Positions 16,995 to 34,094 of a DNA stretch of 64,000 nt are shown piece by piece. The DNA is from an uncultured Lachnospiraceae bacterium (lineage in GTDB: Bacteria; Bacillota; Clostridia; Lachnospirales; Lachnospiraceae): the NCBI GenBank assembly GCA_947632515.1, contig CANRPO010000009.1, positions 33,027 to 97,026 on the forward strand, in the 5' to 3' direction. A model generated the notes under the pieces. It searched no databases. It saw only the letters and a program-made list of their open reading frames with translations, and had not been told where the DNA came from. A program made the translations under genes and the position numbers. Each line of letters begins with the position of its first letter. The stretch's first letter is position 1.

Positions 16995-17062
16995 ATAAAA
17001 TAAGAATAACCTCATCAAATCGGTAATAAATTATACCAATACCTTTTTGTGAGGTTTTCTGT

Positions 17063-18184
17063 ATGATGGATGAGACGCCGCATCAGCACAAAACATATCA
17101 CAGGAATAAGACCGTGACGGTGATGTTCCTCATCCTGCTTGTGTTTGCTGTGTTGATGGGGAGACTTGTATATCTGATGGTCTTTCGGTCGGAGTATTAC
17201 ACGATGCGGGCGAAACAACTGCACGAGCGGGAACGCAGCATCAAGGCGGCCAGAGGGCGGATCATAGACGCGGGCGGCAAGATCCTCGCCGACAACAAGA
17301 CGGTGTGCACCATCTCGGTCATTCACAGTCAGATCGAAGATCAGGAGAAAGTGATCGCCGTGCTCTGCAAGGAGCTGGGACTGTCGGAGGAGTATGTCAG
17401 AAAAAGAGTGGAGAAATATTCCTCCATCGAGAAGATCAAGAGTAATGTGGATAAGAGCGTGGGCGACGCGATCAGGGCATACGATCTGGCGGGCGTAAAA
17501 GTGGACGAGGACTATAAGCGATATTATCCTTACGATTCGCTGGGCTCGAAGGTGCTCGGGTTCACCGGAGGGGACAATCAGGGCATTATCGGACTGGAAG
17601 TGATCTATGAGGAATATTTGCAGGGAGAAGCGGGAACCATCTTGACGGTTACGGACGCCAAAGGAGTGGAAGTCGCTGAGGCGGGTGAGGAGCGTGTGGA
17701 GCCTGTCGAGGGAAAAGACCTGTATATCAGCATGGACATGAATATTCAAAGCTATGCCACGCAGCTCGCCTTACAGACGATGGAGACAAAACAGGCGGAC
17801 AGCGTCTCTATCCTCGTGATGAATCCGCAAAACGGCGAGATCCTCGCCATGGTGAACGTGCCTGAGTTCAACTTGAACGATCCCTACACATTGCCCGACG
17901 GTGTGGGCGGCGATGGGCTGAGCGAGGAGAAAAAGCAGGAGCTTTTGAACGGTATGTGGCGCAACGGCTGCATCAACGATACCTATGAGCCGGGCTCCAC
18001 GTTCAAGATCATCACGGCGGCGGCCGGACTCGAATCCGGCTCGGTCAAGCCCACGGACACCTTCAACTGTCCGGGCTATATTATGGTGGAGGATCGAAGG
18101 ATCAGATGTCACAAGGTGGGCGGGCACGGCACGGAGGACTTCGTGCAGGGAACGATGAACTCCTGCAAGCAGAAAGTTATGTAA
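17063..18184 (+). pseudogene. spoVD: SpoVD-like class B PBP, 5' part (interrupted at the SxN motif)
   Basis: The first 368 codons of a class B PBP, followed by five codons and a TAA supplied by the inserted element. It has a membrane helix (about 15-38), the dimerisation domain and the S-T-F-K nucleophile motif with S312 and K315. The reading breaks directly after S367-C368, so the SxN asparagine and the third active-site motif are missing and this product alone cannot be a transpeptidase. The position after ftsL and the first PBP gene is that of spoVD in Bacillus, whose product makes spore cortex peptidoglycan. The 3' part lies at 34093-34740. It may be a reversible split gene rather than a dead one. 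Confidence 0.9.
18165..18168. repeat. attL core: GCAA at the left junction
   Basis: GCAA follows the T of codon 368 (TGC). The same GCAA ends the element at 34091-34094. Using one copy to join the flanks gives TGC-AAC-CCC-GTC, which reads C-N-P-V in frame. Confidence 0.8.
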
Positions 18185-18221
18185 TATAGAGCAAAGTAAA
18201 AAAGTAGATATGATCCATTTG

Positions 18222-18246
18222 AGAACCGTTTTGCGGTTCTTTTTTT
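18222..18246 (+). terminator. Terminator just inside the left end of the element
   Basis: AGAACCG (18222-18228) pairs with CGGTTCT (18234-18240) around a 5-nt loop and is followed by a run of seven T. It lies 54 bp inside the element and would stop transcription arriving from the mraZ promoter. Confidence 0.82.
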
Positions 18247-18330
18247 GTTCCTTTTGGTTGGACAAGTATAGTATATCACAGATGAAAGAAGTTTTGAATG
18301 GAGACTTCCGGTGTATGGGAGGTGAGAAAA

Positions 18331-18474
18331 ATGCTGATGCATATCATAGCGGTATTACTGTTTTTACCCGGCAGTATCATTGCCGTTGCTAACGCAATAC
18401 GAGATGATCCGCCAATGACTATTTCAGAGAAAACTGTCAGTGCAAAAAACAGAAAGAAAAAACGGAACCGGTAA
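18331..18474 (+). CDS. Small membrane peptide, 47 residues
   Basis: The ATG at 18331 follows GGGAGGTG by 6 bp. The product has a hydrophobic helix (about residues 4-22) and then a strongly basic tail ending K-K-K-R-N-R. I do not recognise a family. It is the first gene of the element and is followed 30 bp later by parA, so it may be part of the maintenance operon. Confidence 0.5.
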   Translation: MLMHIIAVLLFLPGSIIAVANAIRDDPPMTISEKTVSAKNRKKKRNR

Positions 18475-18503
18475 AATTGTAATAATTTATGGAGGAAATT
18501 ATT

Positions 18504-19301
18504 ATGTGTAAAATTATCGCGATTGCAAATCAAAAAGGCGGGGTCGGAAAGACCACGACGGCCATCAATCTCGGCATCGGACTGACTAATAAAGGCAACC
18601 GGGTTCTTCTGGTCGATTTAGATCCACAGGGAAACGCAACACAGGGACTTGGTTTTGATGCGGATTGCCTTGATACTACTATATCTACGATTTTGAGAAA
18701 AATAATCAATAAGGACTATGCGTTTACGCATGATTTCGGTATATTGCGGCATGAAGAAGGACTCGATCTCATGCCGGCTAATATTGAGTTGTCTGTTTTG
18801 GAAACGGAGATTATCTCTCTGTTTTTCGGCAGAGAAAAGATACTGAAGACATATTTGGATATGATCCGCACGGAATATGATTATATTCTAATTGACTGTA
18901 TGCCTTCGCTCAATCTTATAGCGATCAATGCGCTGGTGGCTGCAGATGAAGTTATCATTCCGCTGCACGCACAGTATTACAGTGTGCGCGGCTTGGAACA
19001 GCTCCTGCAGACGATCAGCTCTGTGAGATCTAACGGATTGAATGAAACGCTCAGCATAGCGGGAATTTTGTATACATGCGTCAATGACAGAACGACCTCG
19101 TTTCGTGACGTGCAAAAAATTTTAAAGGATGCATATGGCGCTAACGTCAAAATATATGATAATTACATACCGCGCAGCGTCAAGGCTGAAGAGGCTCCTT
19201 CGTATGGCAAAAGTATTTATGAATATGATCTGTCGGGCAAAGTATCCTGTGCCTACGGCAAATTCACGGATGAGTTTTTGACCATGCATACAGGGAGGTG
19301 A
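18504..19301 (+). CDS. parA: ParA/Soj-type partition ATPase
   Basis: A 265-residue ParA-family ATPase. The deviant Walker A is K-G-G-V-G-K-T-T near residue 11, followed by the L-V-D-L-D-P-Q-G-N motif and the I-D-C-M-P-S-L segment. Such proteins segregate plasmids and extrachromosomal forms of ICEs. I take ATG 18504 because GGAGG at 18491-18495 is 8 bp upstream; an ATG 15 bp earlier overlaps that site. The next gene starts 5 bp after the stop and is its likely partner. Confidence 0.93.
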   Translation: MCKIIAIANQKGGVGKTTTAINLGIGLTNKGNRVLLVDLDPQGNATQGLGFDADCLDTTISTILRKIINKDYAFTHDFGILRHEEGLDLMPANIELSVLETEIISLFFGREKILKTYLDMIRTEYDYILIDCMPSLNLIAINALVAADEVIIPLHAQYYSVRGLEQLLQTISSVRSNGLNETLSIAGILYTCVNDRTTSFRDVQKILKDAYGANVKIYDNYIPRSVKAEEAPSYGKSIYEYDLSGKVSCAYGKFTDEFLTMHTGR

Positions 19302-19306
19302 TTCTG

Positions 19307-20308
19307 ATGGGCGTAAAATTCAATGTAGCAGATCTGGGAAAGACGGGACTGCTTGATCCGGAGCAGCTGGGATATCAGGATTCCATGGAGATTATCAAGG
19401 ACGAAACCCTGAAAATGCAGAAATCTTTCGTAAAGATCGGATGGTATCTGAAACATATTCGGGATAGAGAGTTGTTCAAAGAGGACGGTTATGCCAATAT
19501 CTATGAATGCGCATCGGACAGGCTGGGCTATTCGCAATCCACGACCTCAAGATTTATCAATATCTGTGAAAAGTTTTCAAAAAACCATAATTCTCCCGAA
19601 TTGGATGACCGATACGCCGGATTTGACAAGTCGCAGATGATAGAAATGCTGCCGTTAGCGCCTGACCAACTGGAAAAAGTGACGCCCGACATGACGGTAC
19701 AGCAGATCAGAAACATCAAAGACTCCGCAAGAAAAGAATCCGACGCCGTCGATCGGGAGAGCGAGGGCGTCGAAGACATCCCGGAGCAGACATCCATTGA
19801 AACGGATTTCCCGGAATATATGCCGAAACCGACCGCATTGAGACAAGCGGCCGAGCCTGTCCGAAATAAGGAAGAACCTAAACCTCCATATAACCAAGAA
19901 CCGCTCATGGAGGAATATGCGACGTCGCATAGCGATGTGACAGAGGAAAGTTCAGACACAGATGCCGGAGAATGTCAAGACGGTTCTGAACACGATGAAC
20001 TTCCGTCCTTCCATAATAATGATCAGCGTAAGGAGTGGCTTTCCAACTATAAAGCGTGGGGTCTTTGGTACAGAGATGAAAATATTGACGTGAATTATTA
20101 TAAGTTTGACTTTACAGACGGCAGGCGGCTGATCGTAGAGGAGTATCCGCAGAGGCATGTAGGATTTCCGGTATCTTCCCGTTGTATTCCTTTCTCCGAT
20201 GAAGTATTTTATCATCTGCTGGAATTTGACAAAAAATACTGCCACGCTGCTGACAGCCGGACATATCTTGTGGATTTTTTAAGGAATCTACAGAACAGTA
20301 AAAGCTAA
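19307..20308 (+). CDS. ParB-like/DUF3102-type DNA-binding partner of ParA
   Basis: A 333-residue soluble protein encoded directly after parA. The N-terminal third (about 20-115) resembles the helix-turn-helix region of proteins that sit beside ParA in Clostridia elements, with S-Q-S-T-T-S-R-F-I as the likely recognition helix. A low-complexity acidic linker follows (about 140-235). The last 90 residues form a separate domain beginning near Y-K-F-D-F-T-D-G-R-R. The classical ParB nuclease motif is not visible. A copy of the element palindrome lies inside its coding sequence at 19917. DNA binding at centromere-like sites is inferred from context. Confidence 0.7.
   Translation: MGVKFNVADLGKTGLLDPEQLGYQDSMEIIKDETLKMQKSFVKIGWYLKHIRDRELFKEDGYANIYECASDRLGYSQSTTSRFINICEKFSKNHNSPELDDRYAGFDKSQMIEMLPLAPDQLEKVTPDMTVQQIRNIKDSARKESDAVDRESEGVEDIPEQTSIETDFPEYMPKPTALRQAAEPVRNKEEPKPPYNQEPLMEEYATSHSDVTEESSDTDAGECQDGSEHDELPSFHNNDQRKEWLSNYKAWGLWYRDENIDVNYYKFDFTDGRRLIVEEYPQRHVGFPVSSRCIPFSDEVFYHLLEFDKKYCHAADSRTYLVDFLRNLQNSKS
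19917..19930. repeat. Element palindrome, copy 1 (inside the ParB-like gene)
   Basis: A perfect ATGCGACGTCGCAT core. It is the only copy in the element that lies within a coding sequence. Confidence 0.85.
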
Positions 20309-20341
20309 AATAAAGCCTATATTGCAATCGCACAATATAGA

Positions 20342-20384
20342 TTCTGCCAATTTTTCTTTCCTCCAAATCATGATATTGGCAGAA
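20342..20384 (+). promoter_or_regulatory. Hairpin with anti-Shine-Dalgarno loop upstream of the replication gene
   Basis: TTCTGCCAAT (20342-20351) pairs with ATTGGCAGAA (20375-20384). The loop holds TTTCCTCC around 20360, complementary to the GGAGGG at 20421-20426 and to the G tract at 20450-20458 that precedes the next gene. A riboregulatory role is possible but unproven. Confidence 0.45.
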
Positions 20385-20389
20385 ACAGC

Positions 20390-20418
20390 AAAAGGCAGCC
20401 ATCGTGCTGCCTTTTCTG
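20390..20418 (+). terminator. Terminator between the parAB-like genes and the replication gene
   Basis: AAAAGGCAGC (20390-20399) and GCTGCCTTTT (20406-20415) form a 10-bp stem with the T run as part of the distal arm. It can act on transcripts from either strand. Confidence 0.7.
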
Positions 20419-20464
20419 TTGGAGGGAACCAATAACGACCCTGATATAAGGGGGGGGGCACTGC

Positions 20465-21406
20465 ATGTCTACAGTATTTCGTGTTATTAAGAACGAAAAT
20501 TACACGACTCTCAGTAATTATCATTTTAAAGATCGCCGCTTGTCTTGGAAAGCGAAAGGGTTATTGTCTACCATGTTATCCCTTCCCGGTGATTGGAATT
20601 ATACGATCGAGGGACTGGCGTCTCTGTCCGATGACGGGATTAAGGCGACCAATTCCGGCCTTCGAGAATTGGAACAATGCGGCTATCTTGTCCGACGGCA
20701 ATGCAGAGACGAAAACGGTCATTACGGCGTGACGGAATATATCATTTATGAGCAGCCGCAGGAGAAATCAGGCCAAGATCCTGAAACCGGCCAAGGACTT
20801 TCTCAAGTAAATGACCTAAACAGTCAACCGTATGTCCAAAACGGACAAACGGCCGAAAACAGGGCATTTTCACCGTATGTCCAAAATCGGCAAACCGAAA
20901 AACGGCAAACCGAAAAAGGTGTGCAATTAAATACTAATATATTAAATACTAAAGAATTAAATACTTATAATATTTCCGCCTCTTCCAGAGAAACCAAGGG
21001 ACAGGAAACGAAATATGAGGGTACGGATGAGGAAGAGAAAAAGAGACTGGAACTTGACAGAACCGCGCAGTCATGTCCGAGGGAACTTGTCGAGGCTGTA
21101 TATGCGGAATATGCAAAACGCGGTAAAGATCTTCGCAATTGGATCACGGCGGCAATGTTCAGGCAGATATGTATATCTATCATGGAGAAACAGCGCCGTG
21201 AGCCGATCAGGATGCTGCCGAATCTGATTAATACATATCTTGACAATCTGATAACCGGAGCAAGGACGATAGGATGCGGCAGTTTAGGGCGTGATTCGCC
21301 GACAGCGACAAGAGGTAATCCGTTTCTGAATTTTCCGCAGAACAGTTATGACTTTTCCGAGCTTGAAAAGGAGCTGAGCTGCGCTCAGGGAGGTGAAAGC
21401 AAATGA
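20465..21406 (+). CDS. Replisome organiser/DnaD-like winged-helix protein
   Basis: A 313-residue protein with an N-terminal winged helix (about 1-95) of the type found in phage and ICE replisome organisers, containing L-S-W-K-A-K-G-L-L-S and the pattern Y-T-I-E-G-L-A-S-L. A linker (about 115-165) has short P-Y-V-Q-N-x-Q-T repeats typical of this family, followed by a DnaD-like C-terminal helical region (about 195-265). It may load the helicase for autonomous replication of the excised element. The start ATG is 6 bp after a run of nine G that serves as the ribosome binding site. Confidence 0.75.
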   Translation: MSTVFRVIKNENYTTLSNYHFKDRRLSWKAKGLLSTMLSLPGDWNYTIEGLASLSDDGIKATNSGLRELEQCGYLVRRQCRDENGHYGVTEYIIYEQPQEKSGQDPETGQGLSQVNDLNSQPYVQNGQTAENRAFSPYVQNRQTEKRQTEKGVQLNTNILNTKELNTYNISASSRETKGQETKYEGTDEEEKKRLELDRTAQSCPRELVEAVYAEYAKRGKDLRNWITAAMFRQICISIMEKQRREPIRMLPNLINTYLDNLITGARTIGCGSLGRDSPTATRGNPFLNFPQNSYDFSELEKELSCAQGGESK

Positions 21407-21426
21407 TGACACGGGCACCGTAATTT

Positions 21427-21440
21427 ATGCGACGTCGCAT
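21427..21440. repeat. Element palindrome, copy 2 (perfect, extended)
   Basis: The 14-bp core ATGCGACGTCGCAT extends to an 11-bp half-site palindrome spanning 21423-21444. It lies between the replication gene and the SpoVG-like gene. Confidence 0.9.
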
Positions 21441-21472
21441 AAATCACAAGAAGTGAAGAAAGGGAAAAGAGC

Positions 21473-22195
21473 ATGAAATATTCAATCAAAGTCAATGAAG
21501 TAACCAACAATGAAGGCAGCCTTAAAGGGTATGCCTCCGTTACATTAAACGATTCCTTTAAACTCTCCAATATCCGAATCTTTGAAAATCAGGAGACGGG
21601 AGAGCTCTTTGTGGCCATGCCGAATTATAAGACAAGCGAAGTTGGCGAGAACGGAGAGAATGTCTACAAAGATATTTTTCATCCAATCACGAAGGAATCA
21701 AGGGAAGAACTGTATGCCAACATTCTGGACACATACAGGGAGCTGCATGACCATCAGGCAGGCAGATCCCACCGTACAACGGTGAATGAGAAGGACACCG
21801 TGATGCCTGATTTTTCGGTACGCGTCACACCCTATGAACGGGAAGGCAGCAATGTGAGAGGTCTTGCGAGCATCTGTTTTGACAACAGTATTGTTGTCAA
21901 CAATGTAACTGTCAATGAGAGCAGGGATGGCAAACTGTATGTGAACATGCCGAGCTACAGATCCAGCCAGACCGATGAACACGGCAAGCCGGTGTATAAG
22001 GATTTCTGTAACCCGGTTACGGCAAAATTCCGCGAGAAACTGTATGGCGACATCATCAGTACATACCAGCAGGCGAAGGAGCAGCAGAAGGAATCGCTGA
22101 TGAACAAGCTGAATCAAAATAAGGATGCGGTCGGAGCAAGAACTTCCGGCGATAAGGATAAGACGATCGAATCTCCGGATCGCAGCGAGAGGTAA
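21473..22195 (+). CDS. Tandem two-domain SpoVG-like protein
   Basis: A 240-residue protein made of two SpoVG domains. The first (about 3-88) has N-I-R-I-F-E-N and V-A-M-P-N-Y-K; the second (about 105-190) has N-V-T-V-N-E-S and V-N-M-P-S-Y-R. Each ends with a Y-K-D-(I/F)-x-x-P-(I/V)-T block and a helix. SpoVG is a small RNA- or DNA-binding regulator of about 95 residues, so this protein is a fused duplicate. The last 35 residues are a charged tail (S-L-M-N-K-L-N...S-E-R) shared with other proteins of the element. SpoVG-like genes are common in ICE conjugation regions. Confidence 0.82.
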   Translation: MKYSIKVNEVTNNEGSLKGYASVTLNDSFKLSNIRIFENQETGELFVAMPNYKTSEVGENGENVYKDIFHPITKESREELYANILDTYRELHDHQAGRSHRTTVNEKDTVMPDFSVRVTPYEREGSNVRGLASICFDNSIVVNNVTVNESRDGKLYVNMPSYRSSQTDEHGKPVYKDFCNPVTAKFREKLYGDIISTYQQAKEQQKESLMNKLNQNKDAVGARTSGDKDKTIESPDRSER

Positions 22196-22224
22196 CCGCC
22201 GCCGGGTATGCGGCGTCGTGAAAT

Positions 22225-22238
22225 ATGCGACGTCGCAT
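22225..22238. repeat. Element palindrome, copy 3
   Basis: Perfect ATGCGACGTCGCAT core, 30 bp after the SpoVG-like stop. An imperfect half copy (TATGCGGCGTCGTG) stands directly upstream at 22207-22220, giving a double site that recurs at 27341-27372. Confidence 0.9.
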
Positions 22239-22299
22239 AAATCATTTGCCGCATGTGATAGGATATGATATATTGGTTTTGAAGAAACGGGGTCGTGAC

Positions 22300-22971
22300 A
22301 TGGACATAAAAAAATATATTTTAAGTAATCGGGAATATTTTGAGGATTTCATTACCAGAAGTACCTATCATTCAAATGCAATAGAGGGAAACACGCTTTC
22401 CTATGCGGAGACATATGCCATTCTCTTTAATGACAATGAGTTCAAGGTATCTGCAAAGCCGCGTGAAATTTACGAAGCCATCAATCATAAATATGCGCTG
22501 CATTATGTTCTGGATCAATTGGACAGGAAACTGACGGAGTCCATGATCAAGGATATTGCCATGTTGATCAATAAAAATATATCGGAAATATCCGGATACA
22601 GGACAGTTCCGGTACGGATACGCGGTTCTGAACACATTCCGACGGCTCCGTCGCAAATACCGCAGATGATGATGTACTATGTGCACAATTATAATCAAAC
22701 AGTTTTTGATGATATATTTCAGAAAATGGCTCAGATGCATCTGCAGTTTGAAAGGATTCATCCTTTTGAAGATGGAAATGGGAGAACCGGACGACTGCTG
22801 CTGAACTATGAGCTGCTGAAGAACAATATGGCGCCGCTCGTAATCCCAAAGGAGCAGCGAACGGAATATTTCCTCATGCTGGAGAAACAGGACAGCATGG
22901 AGCTGTCACAATTTTTCAGGGAATTGAGCGAACAGGAGCAGGACCGGATCGATGCGATGCCGGAGAAATAG
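22300..22971 (+). CDS. Fic-domain protein with complete active site (class II)
   Basis: A 223-residue Fic protein. The catalytic motif is H-P-F-E-D-G-N-G-R-T-G-R with the base histidine present, so AMP or another nucleotide can probably be transferred to a target hydroxyl. The N-terminal S-N-A-I-E-G-N matches the inhibitory (S/T)-x-x-x-E-(G/N) helix, so activity is probably self-restrained. I start at ATG 22300; a longer frame begins inside the palindrome but has no ribosome binding site. It lies 32 bp before a second Fic gene. The target is unknown. Confidence 0.88.
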   Translation: MDIKKYILSNREYFEDFITRSTYHSNAIEGNTLSYAETYAILFNDNEFKVSAKPREIYEAINHKYALHYVLDQLDRKLTESMIKDIAMLINKNISEISGYRTVPVRIRGSEHIPTAPSQIPQMMMYYVHNYNQTVFDDIFQKMAQMHLQFERIHPFEDGNGRTGRLLLNYELLKNNMAPLVIPKEQRTEYFLMLEKQDSMELSQFFRELSEQEQDRIDAMPEK

Positions 22972-23003
22972 CCGGTTACTGAAAAACAGAAAAGAGGCCT
23001 GAT

Positions 23004-23792
23004 ATGATAAGCAACAAATACGAGATGACAACAGAAGAGAATATCTTCTGTGCCAAGAGGATTCTTGTGGATTCCGTATATAAACAGGCAAATTTGGAAG
23101 GGATTGCCGTTACATTTGCGCAGACGCAGGATATCTTAAACAATGTGAATGTAAATGGCATTACGCCTAATGAGATCAGCAAGGTATGCTGCCTGAGAGA
23201 TGGCTGGCATTATCTGTTGGATCATCTGCATAAACCTACAGATCTGATCTTTATGGAAGAACTGCATGAATTGGTCGCAAGATTTGATGTCCCCTATCAA
23301 TATCTGGGCAGACTTCGTACTGAGGATGTCCTTATCAGCGGCACATCGTGGCGTCCGGAGATTCCGAATGCTGATAAGATTTTCAGAAGACTATCTGAAT
23401 TGGCAAAGATCACGGACGATACGGAAAGAGCTTTGTCCATAGGACTCTATATCATGCGGGCGCAGCCTTTCAAAGATGGGAATAAAAGGATAGGATCCTT
23501 TGCCATTAACAAGGAATTGATCGAAAAGGGCAGAGGGATATTTAATGTTCCTGTTGAGAGGGACGGACAGTTTAAAGCAATGCTTGTAGACTACTACGAA
23601 ACAGATAACATGGGACCTTTGAAGAAGTGGATCTATGATCATTGTCTGGACGGAACAACATTAGCACCGAAGATTGATGCAATGCCGACAAAGGAAACTC
23701 TTACTGCCCGGCTCGCAGAAAATCAAGAGAAAATACGGATGCAAGAGAGAAACGGCACGGAGCGGACAGAGCCGGATCGTGGCGACAGATGA
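23004..23792 (+). CDS. Fic/Doc-like protein with His to Gln change in the active site
   Basis: A 262-residue Fic-fold protein. The motif reads Q-P-F-K-D-G-N-K-R, so glutamine stands where the catalytic histidine is expected. The inhibitory-helix position reads Q-A-N-L-E-G instead of starting with S or T. The rest of the fold looks intact. The change suggests a lost or altered nucleotidyl-transfer activity, perhaps a regulator of its neighbour. After I-D-A-M-P-T-K, a sequence close to the end of the first Fic protein, it carries a 35-residue charged tail like those of PcfB and the SpoVG-like protein. Confidence 0.82.
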   Translation: MISNKYEMTTEENIFCAKRILVDSVYKQANLEGIAVTFAQTQDILNNVNVNGITPNEISKVCCLRDGWHYLLDHLHKPTDLIFMEELHELVARFDVPYQYLGRLRTEDVLISGTSWRPEIPNADKIFRRLSELAKITDDTERALSIGLYIMRAQPFKDGNKRIGSFAINKELIEKGRGIFNVPVERDGQFKAMLVDYYETDNMGPLKKWIYDHCLDGTTLAPKIDAMPTKETLTARLAENQEKIRMQERNGTERTEPDRGDR

Positions 23793-23814
23793 TCGGAATT
23801 GGGAGTCGTGAAAT

Positions 23815-23828
23815 ATGCGATGTCGCAT
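23815..23828. repeat. Element palindrome, copy 4 (one mismatch)
   Basis: ATGCGATGTCGCAT, 22 bp after the stop of the second Fic gene, preceded by the same GTCGTGAAAT lead as copies 3 and 5. Confidence 0.85.
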
Positions 23829-23897
23829 AATAATGTTTAAGGAGCGGTGAACAGTATTGTTTGCCGCTTTTTTAGATAGCAGAGGAGGTGGATGAAA

Positions 23898-24389: not shown

Positions 24390-24393
24390 GGAT

Positions 24394-26836: not shown

Positions 26837-26858
26837 GGACCGGAGAAAAGAGGAGAAA

Positions 26859-27173: not shown

Positions 27174-27233
27174 ATAGTGTTTCAACAGGAAAAAATGTGC
27201 CTTTGGTAGCCTAATTATACAACCTTTTTCGTT

Positions 27234-27329
27234 ATGGACAAGCTGAACCGAAATAAGGATGCGGTCGGAGCAAGGACTTCCGGCGATAAGGATAAGACGA
27301 TCGAGACTCCGGATCGCAGCGAGAGGTAG
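27234..27329 (+). pseudogene. Duplicated 3' end of the SpoVG-like gene
   Basis: 31 codons plus stop that match the last 31 codons of the SpoVG-like gene (22100-22195) with a few changes. Similarity continues through the downstream palindrome, so about 140 bp (22100-22240 and 27234-27373) form a direct repeat about 90 percent identical. The copy has no ribosome binding site and is probably a recombination scar, though it could encode a free tail peptide. Confidence 0.75.
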
Positions 27330-27358
27330 TCACCACCAAGTATGCGGCATCGTGAAAT

Positions 27359-27372
27359 ATGCGATGTCGCAT
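27359..27372. repeat. Element palindrome, copy 5 (one mismatch, part of the 140-bp duplication)
   Basis: ATGCGATGTCGCAT, preceded by TATGCGGCATCGTG at 27341-27354 as in copy 3. Confidence 0.85.
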
Positions 27373-27429
27373 ACTAATTGTATAAGTATTTTGAAAATAT
27401 AACCCAAAATTAGAGGAGTATATTGTAGT

Positions 27430-28323
27430 ATGTTAAATGATATTCATGATTCGTTAGGTAAGTGGTGGGATGAAATTATAGGTCGTGCCGTAGAAACGGT
27501 TAAGGAAGTCCTTAGGGGCATGATAATAAAAAATATAGATCAGGCTTTTGCGAATTTTAATGATCATCTGGACAAATTCACGGACTCACTCTCCAAATCG
27601 CCGGAATCATTCAATCCAAGCGCCTACCAGACAGTGGTCGATCTTGCCCAAAATGCGATCCTGCCGGTGGGCGTCGTTATTCTGGCGTTTGTTTTTGTCA
27701 TGGAGCTGTATGAGTTCATTAAGGATACCAACAGCGGCGTCGGCGCATTCAACCAGGGAAAATACTTTGAACTGATGGCCACGACGGCGATCATGTTAAT
27801 GGTCATCACCCATGCTACGGACATCGTGCAGACGGTATTCCTGATCGGCTCCGATGCGGTGCAGAAAGCATCGGCAACGGCCTCGGTTTCTTTTCCAGAT
27901 GGATTATTGGAAAGCATCTTTGAGGAAGAAGATATGGGCGTGTTGATTAGTGCGGTAGTTACCTCTTTTATCATCAAGCTGTCCATGTATGTGTGTAATG
28001 TGGCCCTAATTCTCTGTATGTACGCGCGCATGTTTGAGATATACCTGTATATCAGCGCAGCGCCTGCGCCGTTAGCTACGCTGCAGAGCAAGGACTGGGG
28101 AGAGACCGGGAAGAATTATATCCGCGCGATCCTGGCGCTTGCGCTGCAGGCGTTCTTCATGCTGGCGATCATTGCGATCTACGGGGCAGTTCTGGGCGGC
28201 ATGAACACCTCGGGCGGCGATCTGGATTCAGTGCTGTTAGAGTGCCTGGCATTCTGTGTATTGGCGGTCCTGATGCTGTGGAAAGCCGGAGGCATATCCA
28301 AAGCAATCTTTAATGCGCACTAG
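27430..28323 (+). CDS. VirB6/TrbL-like polytopic channel protein
   Basis: A 297-residue membrane protein with five or six hydrophobic helices from about residue 70 onward and a hydrophilic N-terminus (M-L-N-D-I-H-D-S-L-G-K-W-W). In related ICEs the gene after Maff2 encodes this inner-membrane channel component. The reading frame is intact. Downstream, VirB4 would be expected but a toxin-antitoxin pair and a broken prgI are found instead. Confidence 0.8.
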   Translation: MLNDIHDSLGKWWDEIIGRAVETVKEVLRGMIIKNIDQAFANFNDHLDKFTDSLSKSPESFNPSAYQTVVDLAQNAILPVGVVILAFVFVMELYEFIKDTNSGVGAFNQGKYFELMATTAIMLMVITHATDIVQTVFLIGSDAVQKASATASVSFPDGLLESIFEEEDMGVLISAVVTSFIIKLSMYVCNVALILCMYARMFEIYLYISAAPAPLATLQSKDWGETGKNYIRAILALALQAFFMLAIIAIYGAVLGGMNTSGGDLDSVLLECLAFCVLAVLMLWKAGGISKAIFNAH

Positions 28324-28342
28324 AAGTAAGCGGCACCAGCTT

Positions 28343-28356
28343 ATGCGACGTCGCAT
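28343..28356. repeat. Element palindrome, copy 6
   Basis: Perfect core, 20 bp after the VirB6-like stop. The palindrome extends to AAAT on the right. Confidence 0.9.
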
Positions 28357-28473
28357 AAATTTCTAAAGGAGAGAAGAAAAAGTAAATAAAACACTTTTAA
28401 ATTCCTATGTTTTAGCATATAATAAAAATAGTAGTACAATGCACTACAAGAAATGTAGGAAAGGAGTGAGATT

Positions 28474-28701
28474 ATGGCTTTTTCAATCAGGCTGACAGAG
28501 GAAGAAAAATCCCTTGCGGAGAGTTATGCTAAGATTCATGCTATGTCACTGGGAGAAGCGTTTAAGAGGGCACTCTTTGAGCGCATAGAGGACGAATACG
28601 ACATAGAAATAGCAAACGAAGCTTATCAAGATTATTTAGACAGCGGTTGCAAATCTACCCCTATTGCGGAGTTTTGGAGGGAGTTAGATGATGAACTATA
28701 A
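28474..28701 (+). CDS. RelB/DUF6290-like antitoxin
   Basis: A 75-residue protein with an N-terminal ribbon-helix-helix (M-A-F-S-I-R-L-T-E-E-E) and an acidic C-terminus (F-W-R-E-L-D-D-E-L), the standard layout of a DNA-binding antitoxin. GGAAAGGAG precedes the ATG. Its end overlaps the toxin start by 14 bp. The pair would stabilise the element in its host. Confidence 0.87.
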   Translation: MAFSIRLTEEEKSLAESYAKIHAMSLGEAFKRALFERIEDEYDIEIANEAYQDYLDSGCKSTPIAEFWRELDDEL

Positions 28702-28954
28702 TGTTGAGCTGTCGGAACGTTTTAAGAAAGAATTTCGCAAATTAGACAAATATACACAGAAAATGATAAGGGCATGGATTAATAAAAATCTAGTCAGCTG
28801 TTCCGACCCTAGACAACACGGAAAGGGGTTGACGGCGAACAGGAGCGGTCAGTGGCGGTACAGGATAGGCGATTACCGTCTGATCTGTCAGATAGATGAT
28901 GGCAAGCTGGTTATTCTCGCTCTGTCCGTAGGGCATAGACGGGAAGTGTATTGA
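28688..28954 (+). CDS. RelE/ParE-family toxin
   Basis: An 88-residue toxin with the R-F-K-K-E-F-R-K-L-D-K start, the W-R-Y-R-I-G-D-Y-R-L-I-C core strand pair and the V-G-H-R-R-E-V-Y C-terminus typical of RelE-type mRNA interferases. It is translationally coupled to the antitoxin. The arginines of the Y-R-I-G-D-Y-R block are retained, so it is probably active. Confidence 0.92.
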   Translation: MMNYNVELSERFKKEFRKLDKYTQKMIRAWINKNLVSCSDPRQHGKGLTANRSGQWRYRIGDYRLICQIDDGKLVILALSVGHRREVY

Positions 28955-29075
28955 CGCTGTTGCAGGCATGCCCCAATAAGTCATTTTCCAATGGTTTTTC
29001 AACCGATAAAGAAGCGCATGGAAACAGTAAAATGTAAGCCATGCGCTTTTTGTATTTAATAAGCGGCGCCGGCTT

Positions 29076-29089
29076 ATGCGACGTCGCAT
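29076..29089. repeat. Element palindrome, copy 7
   Basis: Perfect core 25 bp before the prgI start. The lead GGC(G/A)CCGGCTTATGCG resembles copy 6. Confidence 0.9.
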
Positions 29090-29113
29090 AAATTTTTAAA
29101 GGAGGAATTTGAA

Positions 29114-29475
29114 ATGCCTTATGTAGCAATCAATAAGGATCTGACGGAAGTCCGAACAACAGTCATGTTCGGACTGACGAGAAGGCAACTGCTGTTCGGT
29201 ATTCCGGGAGTCGGGATCGGAGCGGCAGTTTTTTTCTGAGCAAGGATTACCTCGGCACGACGACGGCAAGCCTGATTTTGTTTGTCTGTGCCTGTATCCC
29301 GTTCTATCTTGCGGAGTATAAGAAGTACGGACAGTATTTTGAAAAGCTGTTTAAGAACTGGTATGAGACGCGGTTCGTCCGAAACACGGAGCGGCCGTAT
29401 ATAACGGAAGACCTATACGGCTATCTTGACCGCATGAACAGATACGAAAGCGCCGTTTTTCGCGGAGTGTTTTAA
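29114..29475 (+). pseudogene. prgI: PrgI-family conjugation protein, frameshifted at a T7 tract
   Basis: The first 41 codons (M-P-Y-V-A-I-N-K-D-L-T-E-V-R) and the remainder from about 29235 (S-K-D-Y-L-G-T-T-T-A-S) lie in different frames. Together they make a normal PrgI of about 120 residues with two membrane helices. The break is at seven T followed by CTGA; one additional T would restore the frame. PrgI is a VirB3-like channel protein. A mutation, a sequencing error, or slippage on the T run could each explain it. The virB4 gene that should follow is missing. Confidence 0.75.
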
Positions 29476-29653
29476 GTCCGCATAGGCGGGCTTGTATAAA
29501 ACACATACCGCCGTGTCCGGCAGAGAAAAAAAGCAGATGGATAAAATGTAAAGCCGGGTATGCGGTTCTTGTTAGATGTTGGAGAAGATGATAAAATTAT
29601 AAAACAGTAAAGTCCTGATACAAAGAGGGAAATATTGCAATGAGGAGGGCTGA

Positions 29654-30810
29654 ATGTCTATTTTAAATATTGTCATAACGATTATCTTAGCGTGTATTGT
29701 ATTGATTGCCTTAATAAAGTTACGATTAATATATTCGATTGCATGGCTTGCAGTCTCTTTTTTAATTGCAGAGCATAAAGAATGGGCATTACATTCATTT
29801 CTGTTTAATTCATGGCATGCGTGGGTGTGGCTTGCAATTGGTATTGCCTCGGTTACTGTTGCAATTATACAGGATGTTAAAGATATTAAAAAAAGAAAAG
29901 CAAAAAAGAGTAGTAGAGATGATGTTTATGCACAATCACAGAATTTTGATTCTGAAGCCGACCGAGTCGATCAGCTTTTTGAGAAGATTGCATCTCAGGG
30001 GAAAAATAATTTCCAGTCTACAGATACAAAAGAAAACAGAGAATTATTGCAAGAAGATGATTTAGGGACAGGAGAACTGTTGCAACCCCAATCAGATGTC
30101 ACAATCGATCATCAGGAAAATGCTGAATCAGATGCGGCAGATGACAATGGACAAGAAGAATTTCATTATTGTGATCATTTGGGGAAATTTAAAACGAAAT
30201 GGGATTATTCTCATAAGAAAAAAGATTTTTTCGATAGTAAAATAGAAAGAAAAATATTTCCGATATTAAAAACATTTATTAATAATGAATATCTTATAAT
30301 TCCGCATGCGGCTCCCGAGAGATTTTGGGTTGGAAGTGGGATGATAATTGGATTCGTACAAACAAGGTTAATAGGATGCACTTTGATTTTGTGATCTTCG
30401 AACAGTTATTCACCGATAAAATGTCGATTATGCTTTTCCCGGTACTGTTTATTGAAGTAAATGGTTCGAGTCATGAAGAGACAACTGAAGCTATAGAGAG
30501 GGATGAATTTAAACAGAAATTATTAGAACAATTTGGGTACAAACTGGCGATAATTGACGCGACAAAGACAATTCCGGACGAAGAATTAGAGCAGATGGTA
30601 GTAAAAAATATTAAAGATGCAGTGCCGAGTAGGAAAGATTATATTGTTCACTGTCCAGTGTGCAAAAAACCTATGATAGTTAAGAAAAATAAAAATCATG
30701 AGTATTTTTATGGCCATGAGTTTAAAAATTCGGAGGGAAAGTATTGCCCGGGAATAAATATATCAGATATTGCACCATTATACGATGGAATCCCAGTAGA
30801 GGGGAAATAG
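29654..30810 (+). pseudogene. DUF2726-like protein with membrane anchor and zinc ribbon, frameshifted
   Basis: Three N-terminal membrane helices (about 1-75) precede a charged linker and a DUF2726-like nuclease-fold domain beginning F-D-S-K-I-E-R-K-I-F. The frame shifts by one base near 30325-30345, in a TTTTGGG context. The second frame continues with N-R-M-H-F-D-F-V, F-I-E-V-N-G-S-S-H and a zinc ribbon C-P-V-C-K-K...Y-C-P-G. The DUF2726 fold is related to restriction endonucleases, so this may have been a defence or DNA-processing cargo gene. The composition is the most AT-rich of the element. Confidence 0.6.
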
Positions 30811-30920
30811 GGTCATAGACTAATTAAAGAAGAGGGCATTCCTCGAGTCACTCGACTTTTGGGGTGCCCTCTATATTTTTGCCAGAATTGCTATTTTGTG
30901 CAGCAATATAGCCTTTTATT

Positions 30921-31369
30921 ATTCCGGATGGTATAGAGAATCCGATAGCATTAGTTAATGACAAGGGAAGAAATACTTTAGCTATCATAAGTAAGATTAC
31001 AGATAGGCAAAATAATAATCTGCTGATTGCCCTGCAGCTTAGCAACAGAATATATGGAAATGAAATCAAAGAGATTAAAAGCATCTATGGAAAGCAGCAT
31101 TTACCGGAATATTTAATAAAGCAAAGTCCTGAAGATGTACATATATATGATAAAAAATAGCCAATACCTTGTCTCCTAGCATAGGATTCCGATTATCCCG
31201 GCCGCCGACAGATAATGGCTATGATCGAAGATTACCACACCCAAACGGGAATGTCAAGCAGCGTTCGCTTACGGACAGGCTGCATGACAAGCAGGAGTTG
31301 CTGACGAATCGGAATCAAGACGGCAAGCGGGAACAGAGCCGCACGAAAGAAGGGAAGGACGAAAGATGA
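30921..31369 (+). pseudogene. Remnant of the C-terminus of a large ICE protein (MuF-C-like end)
   Basis: An open segment (30921-31160) without a start reads I-P-D-G-I-E-N-P-I-A-L-V and I-Y-G-K-Q-H-L-P-E-Y, resembling the C-terminal MuF-C-like domain of very large ICE helicase/methylase proteins. After a frame change, 31169-31369 gives S-R-P-P-T-D-N-G-Y-D-R and then the charged tail S-L-T-D-R-L-H-D-K ending K-D-E-R, which also ends such proteins. The several kilobases that would encode the rest are gone. The match is from recall of the family and should be treated as moderate. Confidence 0.5.
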
Positions 31370-31619
31370 ATAAGATATTATCGCCCTGGAGCTTGATGAA
31401 TACCGGGCGGAGCGCTGGAGATGGAAAGGGACTCTTGGTTTCGATGCGCACATATCTGAGCGTATATTGTCAGACTATATGATCATCGAGCAGGCGGTGC
31501 GCTCAGAGATACAGCGTATGAATGAATTGATCAAAAAGAGTGAGCAGGGATGGAAACGGGAGAACGACGGCAGGCAGGAACAGAGACGGAGAGGATCGGA
31601 TCATGGGTTATGCTGTTAA
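31366..31619 (+). pseudogene. Small ICE protein, frameshifted near the start
   Basis: The ATG at 31366 overlaps the previous stop, but after four codons the coding signal moves to another frame (from 31374: D-I-I-A-L-E-L-D-E-Y-R-A-E), which stays open to 31619. The product would have about 84 residues, helical and charged. I do not recognise a function. It is another broken frame in this stretch. Confidence 0.45.
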
Positions 31620-31926
31620 ATGGAACAAACTGGATGCCGCCATTGCATTCTGTGAGGATAAGTGCAGGAAATTGAGGAAAGCATATCAGGACAGCTCCGA
31701 TGCGGAGCCGGATCCCGAAGAGATGATATTGGCGGAGACGGAGCATCTGCGTCGTGAAAATGAAGGCTTGAGGAAAAGGGAGACGCCCGTCTATTTGCTG
31801 GAAAACGGGGCAGAGCAATATTACTGTCCTGTATGCAGACAGCCGATTCCTGATCCAAACTTCAGATATTGTCCGGATTGCGGGCACAGGGTCATGCGGC
31901 ATATTCCGCTGCCCTTTGAGACGTGA
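31603..31926 (+). CDS. Small zinc-ribbon protein
   Basis: A 107-residue protein with a helical N-terminus (about 1-60) and a C-terminal zinc ribbon: C-P-V-C near residue 76 and C-P-D-C near residue 93. It overlaps the end of the broken upstream gene. Comparable small zinc-ribbon genes stand near the recombinase in Clostridia elements. No function can be assigned. Confidence 0.6.
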   Translation: MGYAVKWNKLDAAIAFCEDKCRKLRKAYQDSSDAEPDPEEMILAETEHLRRENEGLRKRETPVYLLENGAEQYYCPVCRQPIPDPNFRYCPDCGHRVMRHIPLPFET

Positions 31927-31928
31927 AT

Positions 31929-31942
31929 ATGCGACGCCGCAA
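31929..31942. repeat. Element palindrome, copy 8 (degenerate)
   Basis: ATGCGACGCCGCAA keeps the left half site and most of the right, directly after the stop of the zinc-ribbon gene, the same position relative to a gene end as other copies. Confidence 0.6.
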
Positions 31943-31972
31943 GTCGGGCTTGTGTAAGTCACAGGAAAGGAA

Positions 31973-32002
31973 GTAATATTGCCGGTCCCTTAGGAATAGA
32001 AT
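31973..32002 (+). promoter_or_regulatory. Sigma-E-like promoter upstream of the recombinase operon
   Basis: GTAATATT (31973-31980) matches the sigma-E -35 consensus KMATATT, and AATAGAAT (31995-32002) after exactly 14 bp matches five of seven fixed positions of the -10 CATACAnT. Sigma-E is the early mother-cell factor, encoded at 43173 in this window. A sigma-E promoter here would express the recombinase in the mother cell during sporulation. This is a visual match, not a tested promoter. Confidence 0.45.
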
Positions 32003-32036
32003 GGAGCAAGAACCTGTACATATGGGAAGGGGCAAT

Positions 32037-32192
32037 ATGAAAGAGAGGGATATGGAAAGCGCAAAAAAACAATTACTGCTTAATATTTCAGAGATTCTGG
32101 AACAGAGAGGGCTGATCAGCGAAGAAGAAAAGATCCGAATGCGGGATCAGATCATCAATTCCCACACAGGACGAAAAGGAGCGGTGACATGA
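32037..32192 (+). CDS. Small helical protein coupled to the recombinase; possible directionality factor
   Basis: A 51-residue charged helical protein. ATG 32037 follows GGAAGGGG; a TTG at 32001 is in frame but lies inside the putative -10. The body (Q-L-L-L-N-I-S-E-I-L-E-Q-R-G-L-I-S-E) resembles small SHOCT-like peptides often found before large serine recombinases. Its stop overlaps the recombinase start (ATGA), so the two are translated together. Recombination directionality factors of serine integrases are often small proteins encoded next to them, which makes this a candidate by position only. Confidence 0.6.
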   Translation: MKERDMESAKKQLLLNISEILEQRGLISEEEKIRMRDQIINSHTGRKGAVT

Positions 32193-34063
32193 GCCGATGT
32201 GCATATATGAAAGAGAAAGCACAGACGCCGCGCCCGCGTGTCGGTATCTACAACCGCTGTTCCACGGAAGAAGAGGCGCAGAAAAACGCCCTGGCTATCC
32301 AAGCGGCAGAAAGCCGTGAGATTGCGGCCAAGAAAGGCTGGGTGATTGCAGACCAGTACATTGAGAGCGAGTCCGGCACGTCCGTGAAGAACAGGACGGA
32401 GTATCAGCGGCTTATGGAGGACATGGAGAGAGATATATTCGACATTGTGATGATTAAGTCCATTGACAGGCTGATGCGTTCGGCGAAAGACTGGTATCTG
32501 TTCTTAAGCAGACTCACGGAGAATGATAAGCGTTTGTACATTTATATCGACGATAAGTTCTACACGCCGGATGACGGACTGATCTCAGGCATCAAGGCGA
32601 TCCTGGCGGAGGAGTTCAGCAGGGAGTTGTCGAAGAAGATCAAGAATTCCCACAGCCGCAGACAGGAGATGCACAGACAGGGAAAGGCGGCCGGACTGAA
32701 TATCTCCAGACCCATGTTCGGATGGGATAAAGCAGCGAAAGACGTTTATGTCATCAATGAGGCGGAGGCGGCGGCCTACAGGGCAGCTTTCGACATGGCG
32801 CGTTCCGGCAAGGGATTCTATATGATTGCCAATACCATGTATGACAGGGGTATCCGTTCAAAGAACGGGAAACGGATCTCTAATGTTCAGTGGCAGAAGA
32901 TGATCTATTCGCCCAGGGCGCACGGCACAATGGTTATCCATACGAGGGAATATGACTTTGAGACACACAGATTCGTTAAGGTGCCGCCTGAGGAGTGGAT
33001 CTACATAGAGAACGCGTTGCCGCCGATTGTGACGAAGGAGTATCAGGAGGCGGTCTTAAAGGAGATCGAAGGGCGGCGTATCTGCTGCAGGTTCGGGGAG
33101 TACAGGCGTGACATGTCGAATGTCGGACAGTATGATCTGTCCCGCAAAATTTTCTGCGGGATGTGCGGACAGATATATTACCGCACTTCTTTCCGATCCG
33201 GAAAGGACGGACGCAAAATTACAGAGTGGAAGTGTTCCACGGCCTTTACGTCCGGGAGAAAATCGAAAAGCCCGCAAGGCTGCGACAATATCAATCTTCT
33301 GGACGAGCAGCTTCATAAGGTGATCGAAACGGCATGCATCGAACAGTATGAGCATCTGTTTGACGCACAGCAGAATATTATAGACGAGGCAATCCAAGCG
33401 GTGAGAAAAGCATTGCAGGAGGGCACCGCAGACAAGGAACTGGAACAGTGCAGAAGGGAATATGAGAAACTGTCCCGTAGAAAAGACGTATTATTTGATA
33501 AGCTGATGAATGAGACGATTGCAGATGATGAGTTTGAGCGGTATAATCATCAGTTGGAGGAACAAATGATGCCGCTGGCGGATAAGATCAGGTCATTGGA
33601 ACAGAAAAACGATACCTACGCCGACTATGAGGAGCGGCTGGCCAAAATCAAGGAGTCATTCAATGACGGGGACATTGTCAGGCAGGCCAAAACCCAAGAA
33701 CTCATTACAAAAATTGAAAAAATAGTGGTATATTCTGACGGAAAGATCGATATAATCTTTGATAGGATCAAACTGCTTGGCATGCTGAAGATCTATGAGA
33801 CGGATATTCTGCCGGAAGAGAAAGAGGAGGATGACAGGCTGTTTAGGATCACGGCACAGTATGTACATACCGACATTTTCCGCAAGCGGAGAGAGGAATA
33901 CAACGGGAAGATACTGGAAATCCTGCAGAAGGAGCCGCTGATGACGGTTCGGGAAATAGCGGAGCTGCTCGGCGTAACATACTCCTATGCATATACTTCC
34001 GTCAAGCAGCTTAGGAAAGCCGGGAAACTGCCTGCAGACAGGCGTAAGAAACAGAACATATAA
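32189..34063 (+). CDS. Large serine recombinase (site-specific integrase/excisionase of the element)
   Basis: A 624-residue serine integrase. The N-terminal resolvase domain (about 10-155) holds the nucleophile in Y-N-R-C-S-T and the S-I-D-R-L-M-R-S segment. The recombinase domain (about 165-270) is followed by a zinc beta ribbon with C-G-M-C and downstream cysteines (about 320-365), then a coiled coil (about 390-480). After residue about 565 there is an additional helix-turn-helix region (T-V-R-E-I-A-E-L-L-G-V-T-Y) not needed by the basic fold. The frame is intact although genes just upstream are broken. The stop codon is 28 bp before the right junction, and the gene is co-oriented with spoVD. 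Confidence 0.96.
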   Translation: MSRCAYMKEKAQTPRPRVGIYNRCSTEEEAQKNALAIQAAESREIAAKKGWVIADQYIESESGTSVKNRTEYQRLMEDMERDIFDIVMIKSIDRLMRSAKDWYLFLSRLTENDKRLYIYIDDKFYTPDDGLISGIKAILAEEFSRELSKKIKNSHSRRQEMHRQGKAAGLNISRPMFGWDKAAKDVYVINEAEAAAYRAAFDMARSGKGFYMIANTMYDRGIRSKNGKRISNVQWQKMIYSPRAHGTMVIHTREYDFETHRFVKVPPEEWIYIENALPPIVTKEYQEAVLKEIEGRRICCRFGEYRRDMSNVGQYDLSRKIFCGMCGQIYYRTSFRSGKDGRKITEWKCSTAFTSGRKSKSPQGCDNINLLDEQLHKVIETACIEQYEHLFDAQQNIIDEAIQAVRKALQEGTADKELEQCRREYEKLSRRKDVLFDKLMNETIADDEFERYNHQLEEQMMPLADKIRSLEQKNDTYADYEERLAKIKESFNDGDIVRQAKTQELITKIEKIVVYSDGKIDIIFDRIKLLGMLKIYETDILPEEKEEDDRLFRITAQYVHTDIFRKRREEYNGKILEILQKEPLMTVREIAELLGVTYSYAYTSVKQLRKAGKLPADRRKKQNI

Positions 34064-34090
34064 AATGTGCTATCAAGAACAGAAATTTGC

Positions 34091-34094
34091 GCAA
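34091..34094. repeat. attR core: GCAA at the right junction
   Basis: GCAA directly precedes CCCCGTC, which continues spoVD in frame. It pairs with the GCAA at 18165-18168 as the crossover sequence. Confidence 0.8.

What the first reader, a model, noticed from the sequence alone, without database searches (positions are those of the whole stretch)
18165..34094. A 15.9-kb element splits a spoVD-type gene exactly in its SxN catalytic motif, and excision at GCAA would restore it
Seen: the 5' part ends after S367-C368 and the 3' part begins with N-P-V-F. GCAA occurs at both junctions, and a single-copy join gives TGC-AAC-CCC-GTC, in frame, with about 583 codons and all three PBP motifs. Known: sigK (skin), spsM and a few other sporulation genes carry elements that leave by serine recombinase in the mother cell. 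SpoVD is a mother-cell PBP for cortex synthesis. Inference: this is a spoVD intervening sequence excised in sporulation. I know of no described case in spoVD.
Basis: partly seen in the sequence, partly recalled or inferred. Interest (0 to 1): 0.93.

Follow-up and report, generated by a model that had tools for sequence, protein, structure and literature searches.

The report
Excisable element splitting the spoVD gene
In this bacterium a 15.9-kb DNA element splits a spoVD-type cell-wall gene exactly in its active-site motif, related elements sit in the same codon in more than thirty related bacteria while the gene halves stay conserved, and the element is predicted to cut itself out during spore formation and so restore the gene.

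Summary
In detail: element 18167-34092, crossover dinucleotide AA, 583-codon gene restored in frame. It is not a lone accident. Of 77 genomes of the genus, 10 carry an insert in exactly this codon and 65 have an uninterrupted gene reading Asn-Ser-Cys-Asn-Pro there. In GTDB genomes 33 of 80 recombinase relatives, from several named Lachnospiraceae genera, sit beside a spoVD half cut at this codon (all 33 with >=42% identity, none of 47 at <=40%). Closed inserts run from 3.4 to 24.7 kb; cargo differs (conjugation remnants, sugar uptake, TrpX-like ABC transporter), the recombinase stays. Both spoVD halves evolve under strong purifying selection (omega about 0.04; neutrality rejected), and in most pairs compared within clade A recombinase dS is like host dS, so the split appears old and the gene still used. 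Element ends form an inverted repeat centred on AA. A conserved small ORF plus recombinase is preceded, in 20 of 33 cases, by a motif (ATA-N15/16-[CA]ATAnAnT) shared with spoVD and with the sigma-E gene spoIIIAA and found before 2 of 541 other ORFs. Best explanation: mother-cell excision, as in skin/sigK, at a target not described in the papers searched. Excision itself is unobserved.

The parts
17003..17032 (+). Sigma-E-like promoter motif of spoVD (AGAATAACC ... AATAAATT)
   Evidence: Same pattern before 82 of 89 spoVD genes, 2 of 541 other ORFs; sequence
17063..18166 (+). 5' part of spoVD-type class B PBP gene (M1 to C368; GSTFK active-site motif, first two residues of the SCN motif)
   Evidence: PF03717 and PF00905 N-terminal part; TIGR02214 300.7 bits
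18165..18168 (+). attL repeat GCAA; crossover dinucleotide AA at 18167-18168
18167..34092 (+). 15,926-bp spoVD-intervening element
   Evidence: empty sites in 65 of 77 genus genomes
18169..18192 (+). Left attP arm (inverted-repeat partner of 34069-34092)
   Evidence: 15 of 24 matches in G000; 27-element statistics
18489..19301 (+). ParA-type ATPase
   Evidence: PF13614 E 5.8e-58
20465..21406 (+). HTH_36 protein (replication-initiator-like by recall)
   Evidence: PF13730
21473..22195 (+). Protein with two SpoVG-like stretches
   Evidence: PF04026 E 8.3e-44
22225..23792 (+). Two Fic-domain proteins
   Evidence: PF02661
24968..26836 (+). T4SS coupling protein (VirD4/TraG type)
   Evidence: PF02534 E 1.7e-47
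27430..28323 (+). TrbL/VirB6-like membrane protein
   Evidence: PF19478
28474..28954 (+). DUF6290 protein and ParE-type toxin: likely a toxin-antitoxin pair
   Evidence: PF19807 and PF05016
31973..32002 (+). Sigma-E-like promoter motif GTAATATT-N14-AATAGAAT of the small ORF-recombinase operon
   Evidence: This form or a near one, with fixed spacing, in all 10 genus elements; pattern 20 of 33 vs 0.5 in shuffles
32037..32192 (+). 51-aa ORF, conserved; candidate recombination directionality factor (inferred)
   Evidence: A like ORF found by pattern upstream of the recombinase in 26 of 35 elements; no Pfam match; its stop overlaps the recombinase start (ATGA)
32189..34063 (+). Large serine recombinase, 624 aa
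   Evidence: PF00239, PF07508, PF13408
34069..34092 (+). Right attP arm
34091..34094 (+). attR repeat GCAA; crossover dinucleotide AA at 34093-34094
34093..34740 (+). 3' part of spoVD-type gene (N369 to stop; KTAT motif)
   Evidence: PF00905 positions 104-299; no hydrophobic export segment
43221..43904 (+). SigE gene of the host, about 9 kb downstream
   Evidence: TIGR02835 370.2 bits at G000:C9:76247-76930

Best explanation
A 15.9-kb element encoding a large serine recombinase splits a spoVD-type gene at the AA of its Ser-Cys-Asn codons, and it is predicted to be excised in the mother cell during sporulation, which would restore a 583-codon transpeptidase gene. Shown: the split, the in-frame join, the same-codon inserts in other species, the purifying selection on both halves, the inverted-repeat attachment site, the conserved small ORF-recombinase operon and its sigma-E-like motif. 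Inferred steps: (1) sigma-E would switch on the operon in the mother cell after asymmetric division; (2) the 51-aa protein likely acts as recombination directionality factor; (3) attL x attR recombination at AA would release a circle and join TGY-AAY; (4) spoVD, likely driven by sigma-E as well, would then be expressed for cortex synthesis; (5) since the mother cell dies, the germ line would keep the insert, which would explain why the split is inherited and the gene is nevertheless selected.
For: Same codon in 10 of 77 genus genomes, empty in 65. 33 of 80 recombinase loci from GTDB genomes lie beside a spoVD half cut at that codon: all 33 with recombinase identity >= 42%, none of 47 at <= 40%. 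Omega of the split gene 0.040 (three species), 0.042 (five), 0.045 (ten); omega = 1 rejected with 2dlnL 747, 1378, 3307; intact clades 0.025-0.035. Recombinase dS is like host (ftsI) dS in five of six clade A pairs compared (0.55/0.63, 0.66/0.64, 0.62/0.62, 1.06/0.97, 0.95/0.91) and roughly in G072-G073 (1.53/1.30); in other species recombinase and mraY distances correlate, r 0.909, n 19, p 0.0001: long vertical residence. Recombinase omega about 0.10-0.18, so it too is selected. attP inverted repeat. Sigma-E-like motif: recombinase operons 20 of 33, spoVD 82 of 89, spoIIIAA 20 of 20, other ORFs 2 of 541; the C. difficile sigma-E -35 is an ATA motif with a -10 like that of sigma-K (PMC3789822, passages). 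Sporulation genes present.
Against: No read, PCR or expression evidence. The predicted circle junction of G000 was not found in viral contigs (weak test). The motif is absent in its strict form in 13 of 33 operons, and in the genus elements its -10 begins with A, not C. In 310-nt windows, 7 of 47 relatives outside spoVD also have it against 20 of 35 in spoVD, so it does not mark spoVD elements alone. G019 is split but has no SpoIVA or SigE match. SpoIIID was not found in G000, G011, G018, G095. Omega of split genes is slightly above that of intact ones. Signs of horizontal exchange: G096-G095 recombinase dS 0.49 vs host about 1.4-2.3; G000-G019 0.86 vs about 1.1-1.8; G000-G095 recombinase dS is above host ftsI (1.59 vs 0.83). 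G028 and G077, intact, lie among G072 and G073 in the host tree. TIGR02214 (spoVD) scores lie below its cut-off.
Confidence: 0.84

Rival explanations
1. Ordinary site-specific mobile elements (ICEs and relatives) use a conserved spoVD codon as attB and simply inactivate a dispensable gene; no developmental excision.
For: The G000 element carries conjugation-type genes, G033's by eye; some recombinases moved horizontally (G096-G095); spoVD is a laboratory secondary site of ICEBs1 (PMC3715440, passages).
Against: Both halves intact and at omega about 0.04 over divergences at which the insert was, by recombinase dS, already resident in clade A; neutral model rejected; small inserts keep the recombinase operon and attachment sites; sigma-E-like motif.
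Confidence: 0.08
2. Excision is a stochastic or mobility-linked switch in vegetative populations rather than a sporulation event; enough cells carry the joined gene to keep it under selection.
For: G000 and G033 look ICE-derived; the yin element in C. botulinum was detected excised at all time points (PMC10747680, passages).
Against: Motif shared with spoVD and spoIIIAA; in most elements printed no transfer genes were seen by eye (not scanned); vegetative excision would tend to lose the element, yet it appears long inherited.
Confidence: 0.06
3. The two halves are made as two polypeptides that assemble into a working PBP; no DNA change is needed.
For: Both halves stay open and conserved.
Against: In 6 of 10 genus elements the open frame upstream of the 3' half has no start codon, and in none of the ten do the first 60 residues hold a hydrophobic segment (max Kyte-Doolittle 0.58-1.07, against 2.64 for the N-terminal anchor in three genomes), so the 3' half could hardly be exported.
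Confidence: 0.02

Closest known systems
skin elements in sigK (B. subtilis, C. difficile)
   Same: Serine recombinase in an insert that splits a mother-cell sporulation gene; recombinase (B. subtilis) or RDF (C. [quoted passage not shown]
   Different: Target is a structural cell-wall enzyme, not a sigma factor; no close phage relatives found here; found across Lachnospiraceae; excision not yet observed.
gin in gerE (B. cereus)
   Same: Non-phage element; recombinase and a small factor expressed in sporulation; crossover predicted at AA within an inverted repeat (PMC5595907: abstract, introduction, start of results, discussion).
   Different: gin has three recombinases and is reported from B. 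cereus and B. toyonensis strains; here one recombinase, with apparent residence over many species.
SPbeta in spsM, vfbin in spoVFB, vrin, yin in yabG
   Same: Same logic; SprB, required for SPbeta excision, is a 58-aa protein with a mother-cell promoter (PMC4191935, abstract and passages; vfbin and yin from PMC10747680, passages; vrin named in PMC4191935, passages).
   Different: Prophages or prophage-like; other target genes.
ICEBs1 in secondary site spoVD
   Same: A mobile element integrated in spoVD (PMC3715440, passages).
   Different: Obtained in the laboratory in strains lacking the normal attB, different integrase type (recalled), excision undetectable.

Membership tests
Developmentally excised sporulation-gene intervening elements (skin type) | Insert splits a sporulation gene; exact removal restores the frame | tested here: met
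Developmentally excised sporulation-gene intervening elements (skin type) | Element encodes a serine recombinase and has attachment sites with inverted repeat | tested here: met
Developmentally excised sporulation-gene intervening elements (skin type) | Small directionality factor | tested here: inconclusive
   Conserved 51-aa ORF by position and size only
Developmentally excised sporulation-gene intervening elements (skin type) | Recombinase or RDF under mother-cell sigma control | tested here: inconclusive
   Motif statistics only
Developmentally excised sporulation-gene intervening elements (skin type) | Excision occurs in the mother cell during sporulation | not testable with these tools
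   Needs reads, PCR or Southern blots
SpoVD | Class B PBP recognised by the spoVD_pbp model | tested here: inconclusive
   TIGR02214 is its best model with 554 bits (intact G001), above the ftsI-type neighbour's 387, but below the cut-off of 688
SpoVD | Encoded in the division cluster after an ftsI-type PBP and before mraY (names by recall), with a sigma-E-like promoter | tested here: met
Autonomous ICE | Relaxase, VirB4-type ATPase, coupling protein, integrase | tested here: not met
   Coupling protein, TrbL-like protein and recombinase present; no relaxase or VirB4 among 17 element ORFs scanned in G000; some small ORFs not scanned

The most novel reading that the evidence does not exclude
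An old, family-wide developmental DNA rearrangement of Lachnospiraceae: one lineage of serine recombinase has made a codon of spoVD its permanent home, is inherited with the host, and has turned the insert into a protected cargo locus (conjugation remnants, sugar uptake, TrpX-like transporter) that is erased from the mother cell at each sporulation; spoIIID is a second such site with an unrelated recombinase.
Probability: 0.6. Interest if true: 0.9.

Novelty: new variant of a known kind. Interest (0 to 1): 0.84.

Why it matters
Programmed genome rearrangement in sporulation is known from a few Bacillus and Clostridium genes, mostly as prophage-like inserts. Here the target is a cortex-type transpeptidase gene, the element has no close phage relatives (a pattern-limited scan of viral contigs gave three, at 25-38%), and the insert appears to have stayed through the divergence of many species with cargo exchanged around a constant recombinase operon. 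It would change gene annotation (spoVD looks broken where it is not), bear on which commensals can truly sporulate, and make testable why hosts keep such inserts. Strains named in the records, apparently isolates (Parablautia intestinalis D8-82, Lachnospiraceae bacterium 10-1, 1XD21-87 and IMSAGC_005, Roseburia hominis An869, Bacterium 1xD42-87), allow a direct test.

Tried and rejected
Prophage origin: a scan of viral contigs gave three relatives at 25-38%. Circle junction of G000 in viral contigs: none. Recent insertion with no time for decay: rejected for clade A and, less surely, G072/G073 by dS; not for G096, G033 or G019. Split two-chain PBP. A second intact spoVD: not seen. A vegetative promoter reading of the conserved motif was set aside because the spacing does not fit sigma-A (read by eye). 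IQ-TREE's report did not print omega; it was read from the checkpoint files; one value there (intact_W ftsI, omega 0.001, kappa 50) is a failed fit and was not used. The small ORF was found by a pattern in 26 of 35 elements (no chance rate was worked out; in L150 the recombinase motif used as anchor was not found); in seven more its region was located by eye to make the 33 promoter regions. The first control count for the motif (85 of 710) was inflated by spoVD genes; separate them. The motif was written after seeing recombinase and spoIIIAA sequences, so the 541-ORF background is the fairer control, and spoIIIAA is not an independent test. Among the 47 loci outside spoVD, three (L153, L164, L192) have under 400 nt after the recombinase, so a 3' half could hardly be seen there. 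The family sample scored only three candidates per genome, so 4 of 397 is a lower bound. Relatives outside spoVD were looked at briefly without finding an interrupted gene.
Full report
The observation. The 5' part of a spoVD-type class B PBP ends at Ser367-Cys368 and the 3' part begins at Asn369, 15.9 kb downstream. The element proper is 18167-34092 (15,926 bp), flanked by AA within GCAA. Joining gives TCC-TGC-AAC-CCC in frame, 583 codons. The third PBP motif is KTAT in 75 of 76 genus sequences and 23 of 23 more distant ones, so it is not a defect of this copy.

Empty and filled sites. With an intact relative as query, all 77 genomes of the genus returned by the tool were searched. In 65 the gene is uninterrupted, and all 65 read Asn-Ser-Cys-Asn-Pro with TGY-AA at the site; one of them, G084, has a second 3' fragment at a contig start. 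In 10 it is cut at this codon; in G035 the frame is broken elsewhere and contains Ns; in G025 only the paralogue was found. Junctions of all ten were read: left TGY-AA, right NGY-AA(C/T), and each would restore Ser-Cys-Asn. G033's halves lie on two contigs. Lengths of the nine closed inserts are 3,482 to 24,687 bp. Contents differ: ParA, coupling protein and TrbL-like protein in G000; by eye, a longer conjugative set in G033, ABC transporters and regulators in G072 and G073 (a GH30 enzyme of G073 by Pfam), and in G018, G019, G005 and G095 little besides the recombinase and a putatively exported protein (no Pfam match for G005's).

Beyond the genus. A profile of 27 recombinases found 80 loci in GTDB genomes (the best 80 of 154 are kept by the tool). 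All 33 have recombinase identity of 42% or more; none of the 47 at 40% or less does (three of these 47 end under 400 nt after the recombinase). Of the 25, 17 carry an ABC transporter permease and ATPase, on the opposite strand where printed, closed inserts of this kind being 4.0-5.8 kb; the binding protein of one, L141, is nearest to TrpX (232.5 bits, below the 390 cut-off). In an even sample of 397 family genomes (334 genera) four, G000 included, had a recombinase of 52% or more, all four beside the spoVD 3' half; only three candidates per genome were scored.

Age and selection. In a host tree of ftsI, mraY and murD (75 genomes) the split genes fall in a clade of five (G000, G011, G005, G018, G095), a pair (G096, G019), G072 and G073 with two intact relatives among them, and G033. 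Recombinase dS is like ftsI dS for five of the six pairs compared within the five (G000-G095 is higher, 1.59 vs 0.83), somewhat higher for G072-G073 (1.53 vs 1.30) and G096-G019 (1.13 vs 0.78), and lower for G096-G095 (0.49 vs 1.41) and G000-G019 (0.86 vs 1.27), signs of transfer. The recombinase tree also places G019 nearer to G000 than to G096. So both vertical residence and some exchange occur. The codon alignment of both halves gives omega 0.040 for three species, 0.042 for five, 0.045 for ten; omega of 1 is rejected by 2dlnL of 747, 1378 and 3307; five intact groups give 0.025-0.035. The small excess could be slight relaxation. In the distant group omega is 0.030 (5' half, 15 taxa) and 0.042 (3' half, 23 taxa), and recombinase distances follow mraY distances (r 0.909, n 19, p 0.0001). 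A gene that could never be expressed would not look like this.

Attachment sites. Ends of 27 elements form an inverted repeat centred on AA (13.96 of 24; shuffles 6.50 with sd 0.41; shifted registers 5.9-7.6). This fixes the crossover and indicates that both ends are maintained.

The operon. Upstream of the recombinase lies a small ORF, found by pattern in 26 of 35 elements, in G000 51 aa and overlapping the recombinase start. Before it, all ten genus elements have GTAATATT-N14-AATARAAT or a near form. The pattern ATA-N15/16-[CA]ATAnAnT occurs in 20 of 33 operons (shuffles 0.5), before 82 of 89 spoVD genes and 20 of 20 spoIIIAA genes, and before 2 of 541 other ORFs and 1 of 80 ORFs of other PBPs or spoVD 3' halves. 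spoIIIAA is a sigma-E operon in C. difficile and B. subtilis, and the C. difficile sigma-E -35 is an ATA motif (PMC3789822, passages); that spoVD is sigma-E-dependent in B. subtilis is recalled. Of relatives outside spoVD, 7 of 47 have the pattern in 310-nt windows, against 20 of 35 in spoVD, so sporulation control may be wider in this recombinase family.

Sporulation capacity. SpoIVA: 71 of 77 genus genomes, 9 of 10 split ones. SpoIIIAA: 20 of 20 tested. SigE: 9 of 10 split ones. G019 lacks SpoIVA and SigE matches. SpoIIID was not matched in G000, G011, G018 and G095 and is broken in G005 and G033. SpoVD is needed for cortex in B. subtilis (PMC3906833, start of abstract and passages).

Literature. 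Searches and 84 of the open PMC library gave no intervening element in spoVD; the only spoVD insertion seen is a laboratory ICEBs1 secondary site with undetectable excision (PMC3715440, passages). Subscription papers and bioRxiv preprints are largely not held, so this is a bounded statement.

Verdict. What is shown is a conserved, split, selected gene with a maintained excision system; what is inferred is that excision happens, and its time and place.

Noticed in passing
L329 (G092), L330 (G082), L294 and L295 (G033), L293 (G005): spoIIID is also split in this genus at STVH|KDVT, with a different serine recombinase next to the 3' half in G092, G082 and G033 (G092: halves 13.8 kb apart; shared TACATA; a join would give the intact reading). 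In G005 only the 5' half was found. Of 77 genomes 49 have any match; several have an intact copy plus extra 5' halves. A possible second developmental intervening site.
   Followed up: partly
G000, G011, G018, G095: No spoIIID match at all, although G095 is listed as 100% complete.
   Followed up: no
L149, L151-L161, L164-L185, L187-L199: Recombinase relatives at 34-40% lie outside spoVD, several beside an ABC transporter (nearest models SaoP/SaoA in L189) or an nrdD-like gene (by eye); 7 of 47 have the sigma-E-like motif.
   Followed up: partly
L049 end and L050 start (G033 contigs C82 and C45): The assembly breaks inside the insert where the end of an exported-protein gene seems to recur in inverted orientation (by eye); might be a variable or repeated region.
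   Followed up: no
window 17008-17056: Between ftsI and spoVD an inverted repeat (AACCTCA ... TGAGGTT) surrounds the spoVD promoter motif and looks conserved, by eye, in the 24 genomes printed.
   Followed up: no
window 21473-22195: The element encodes a protein with two SpoVG-like stretches.
   Followed up: no
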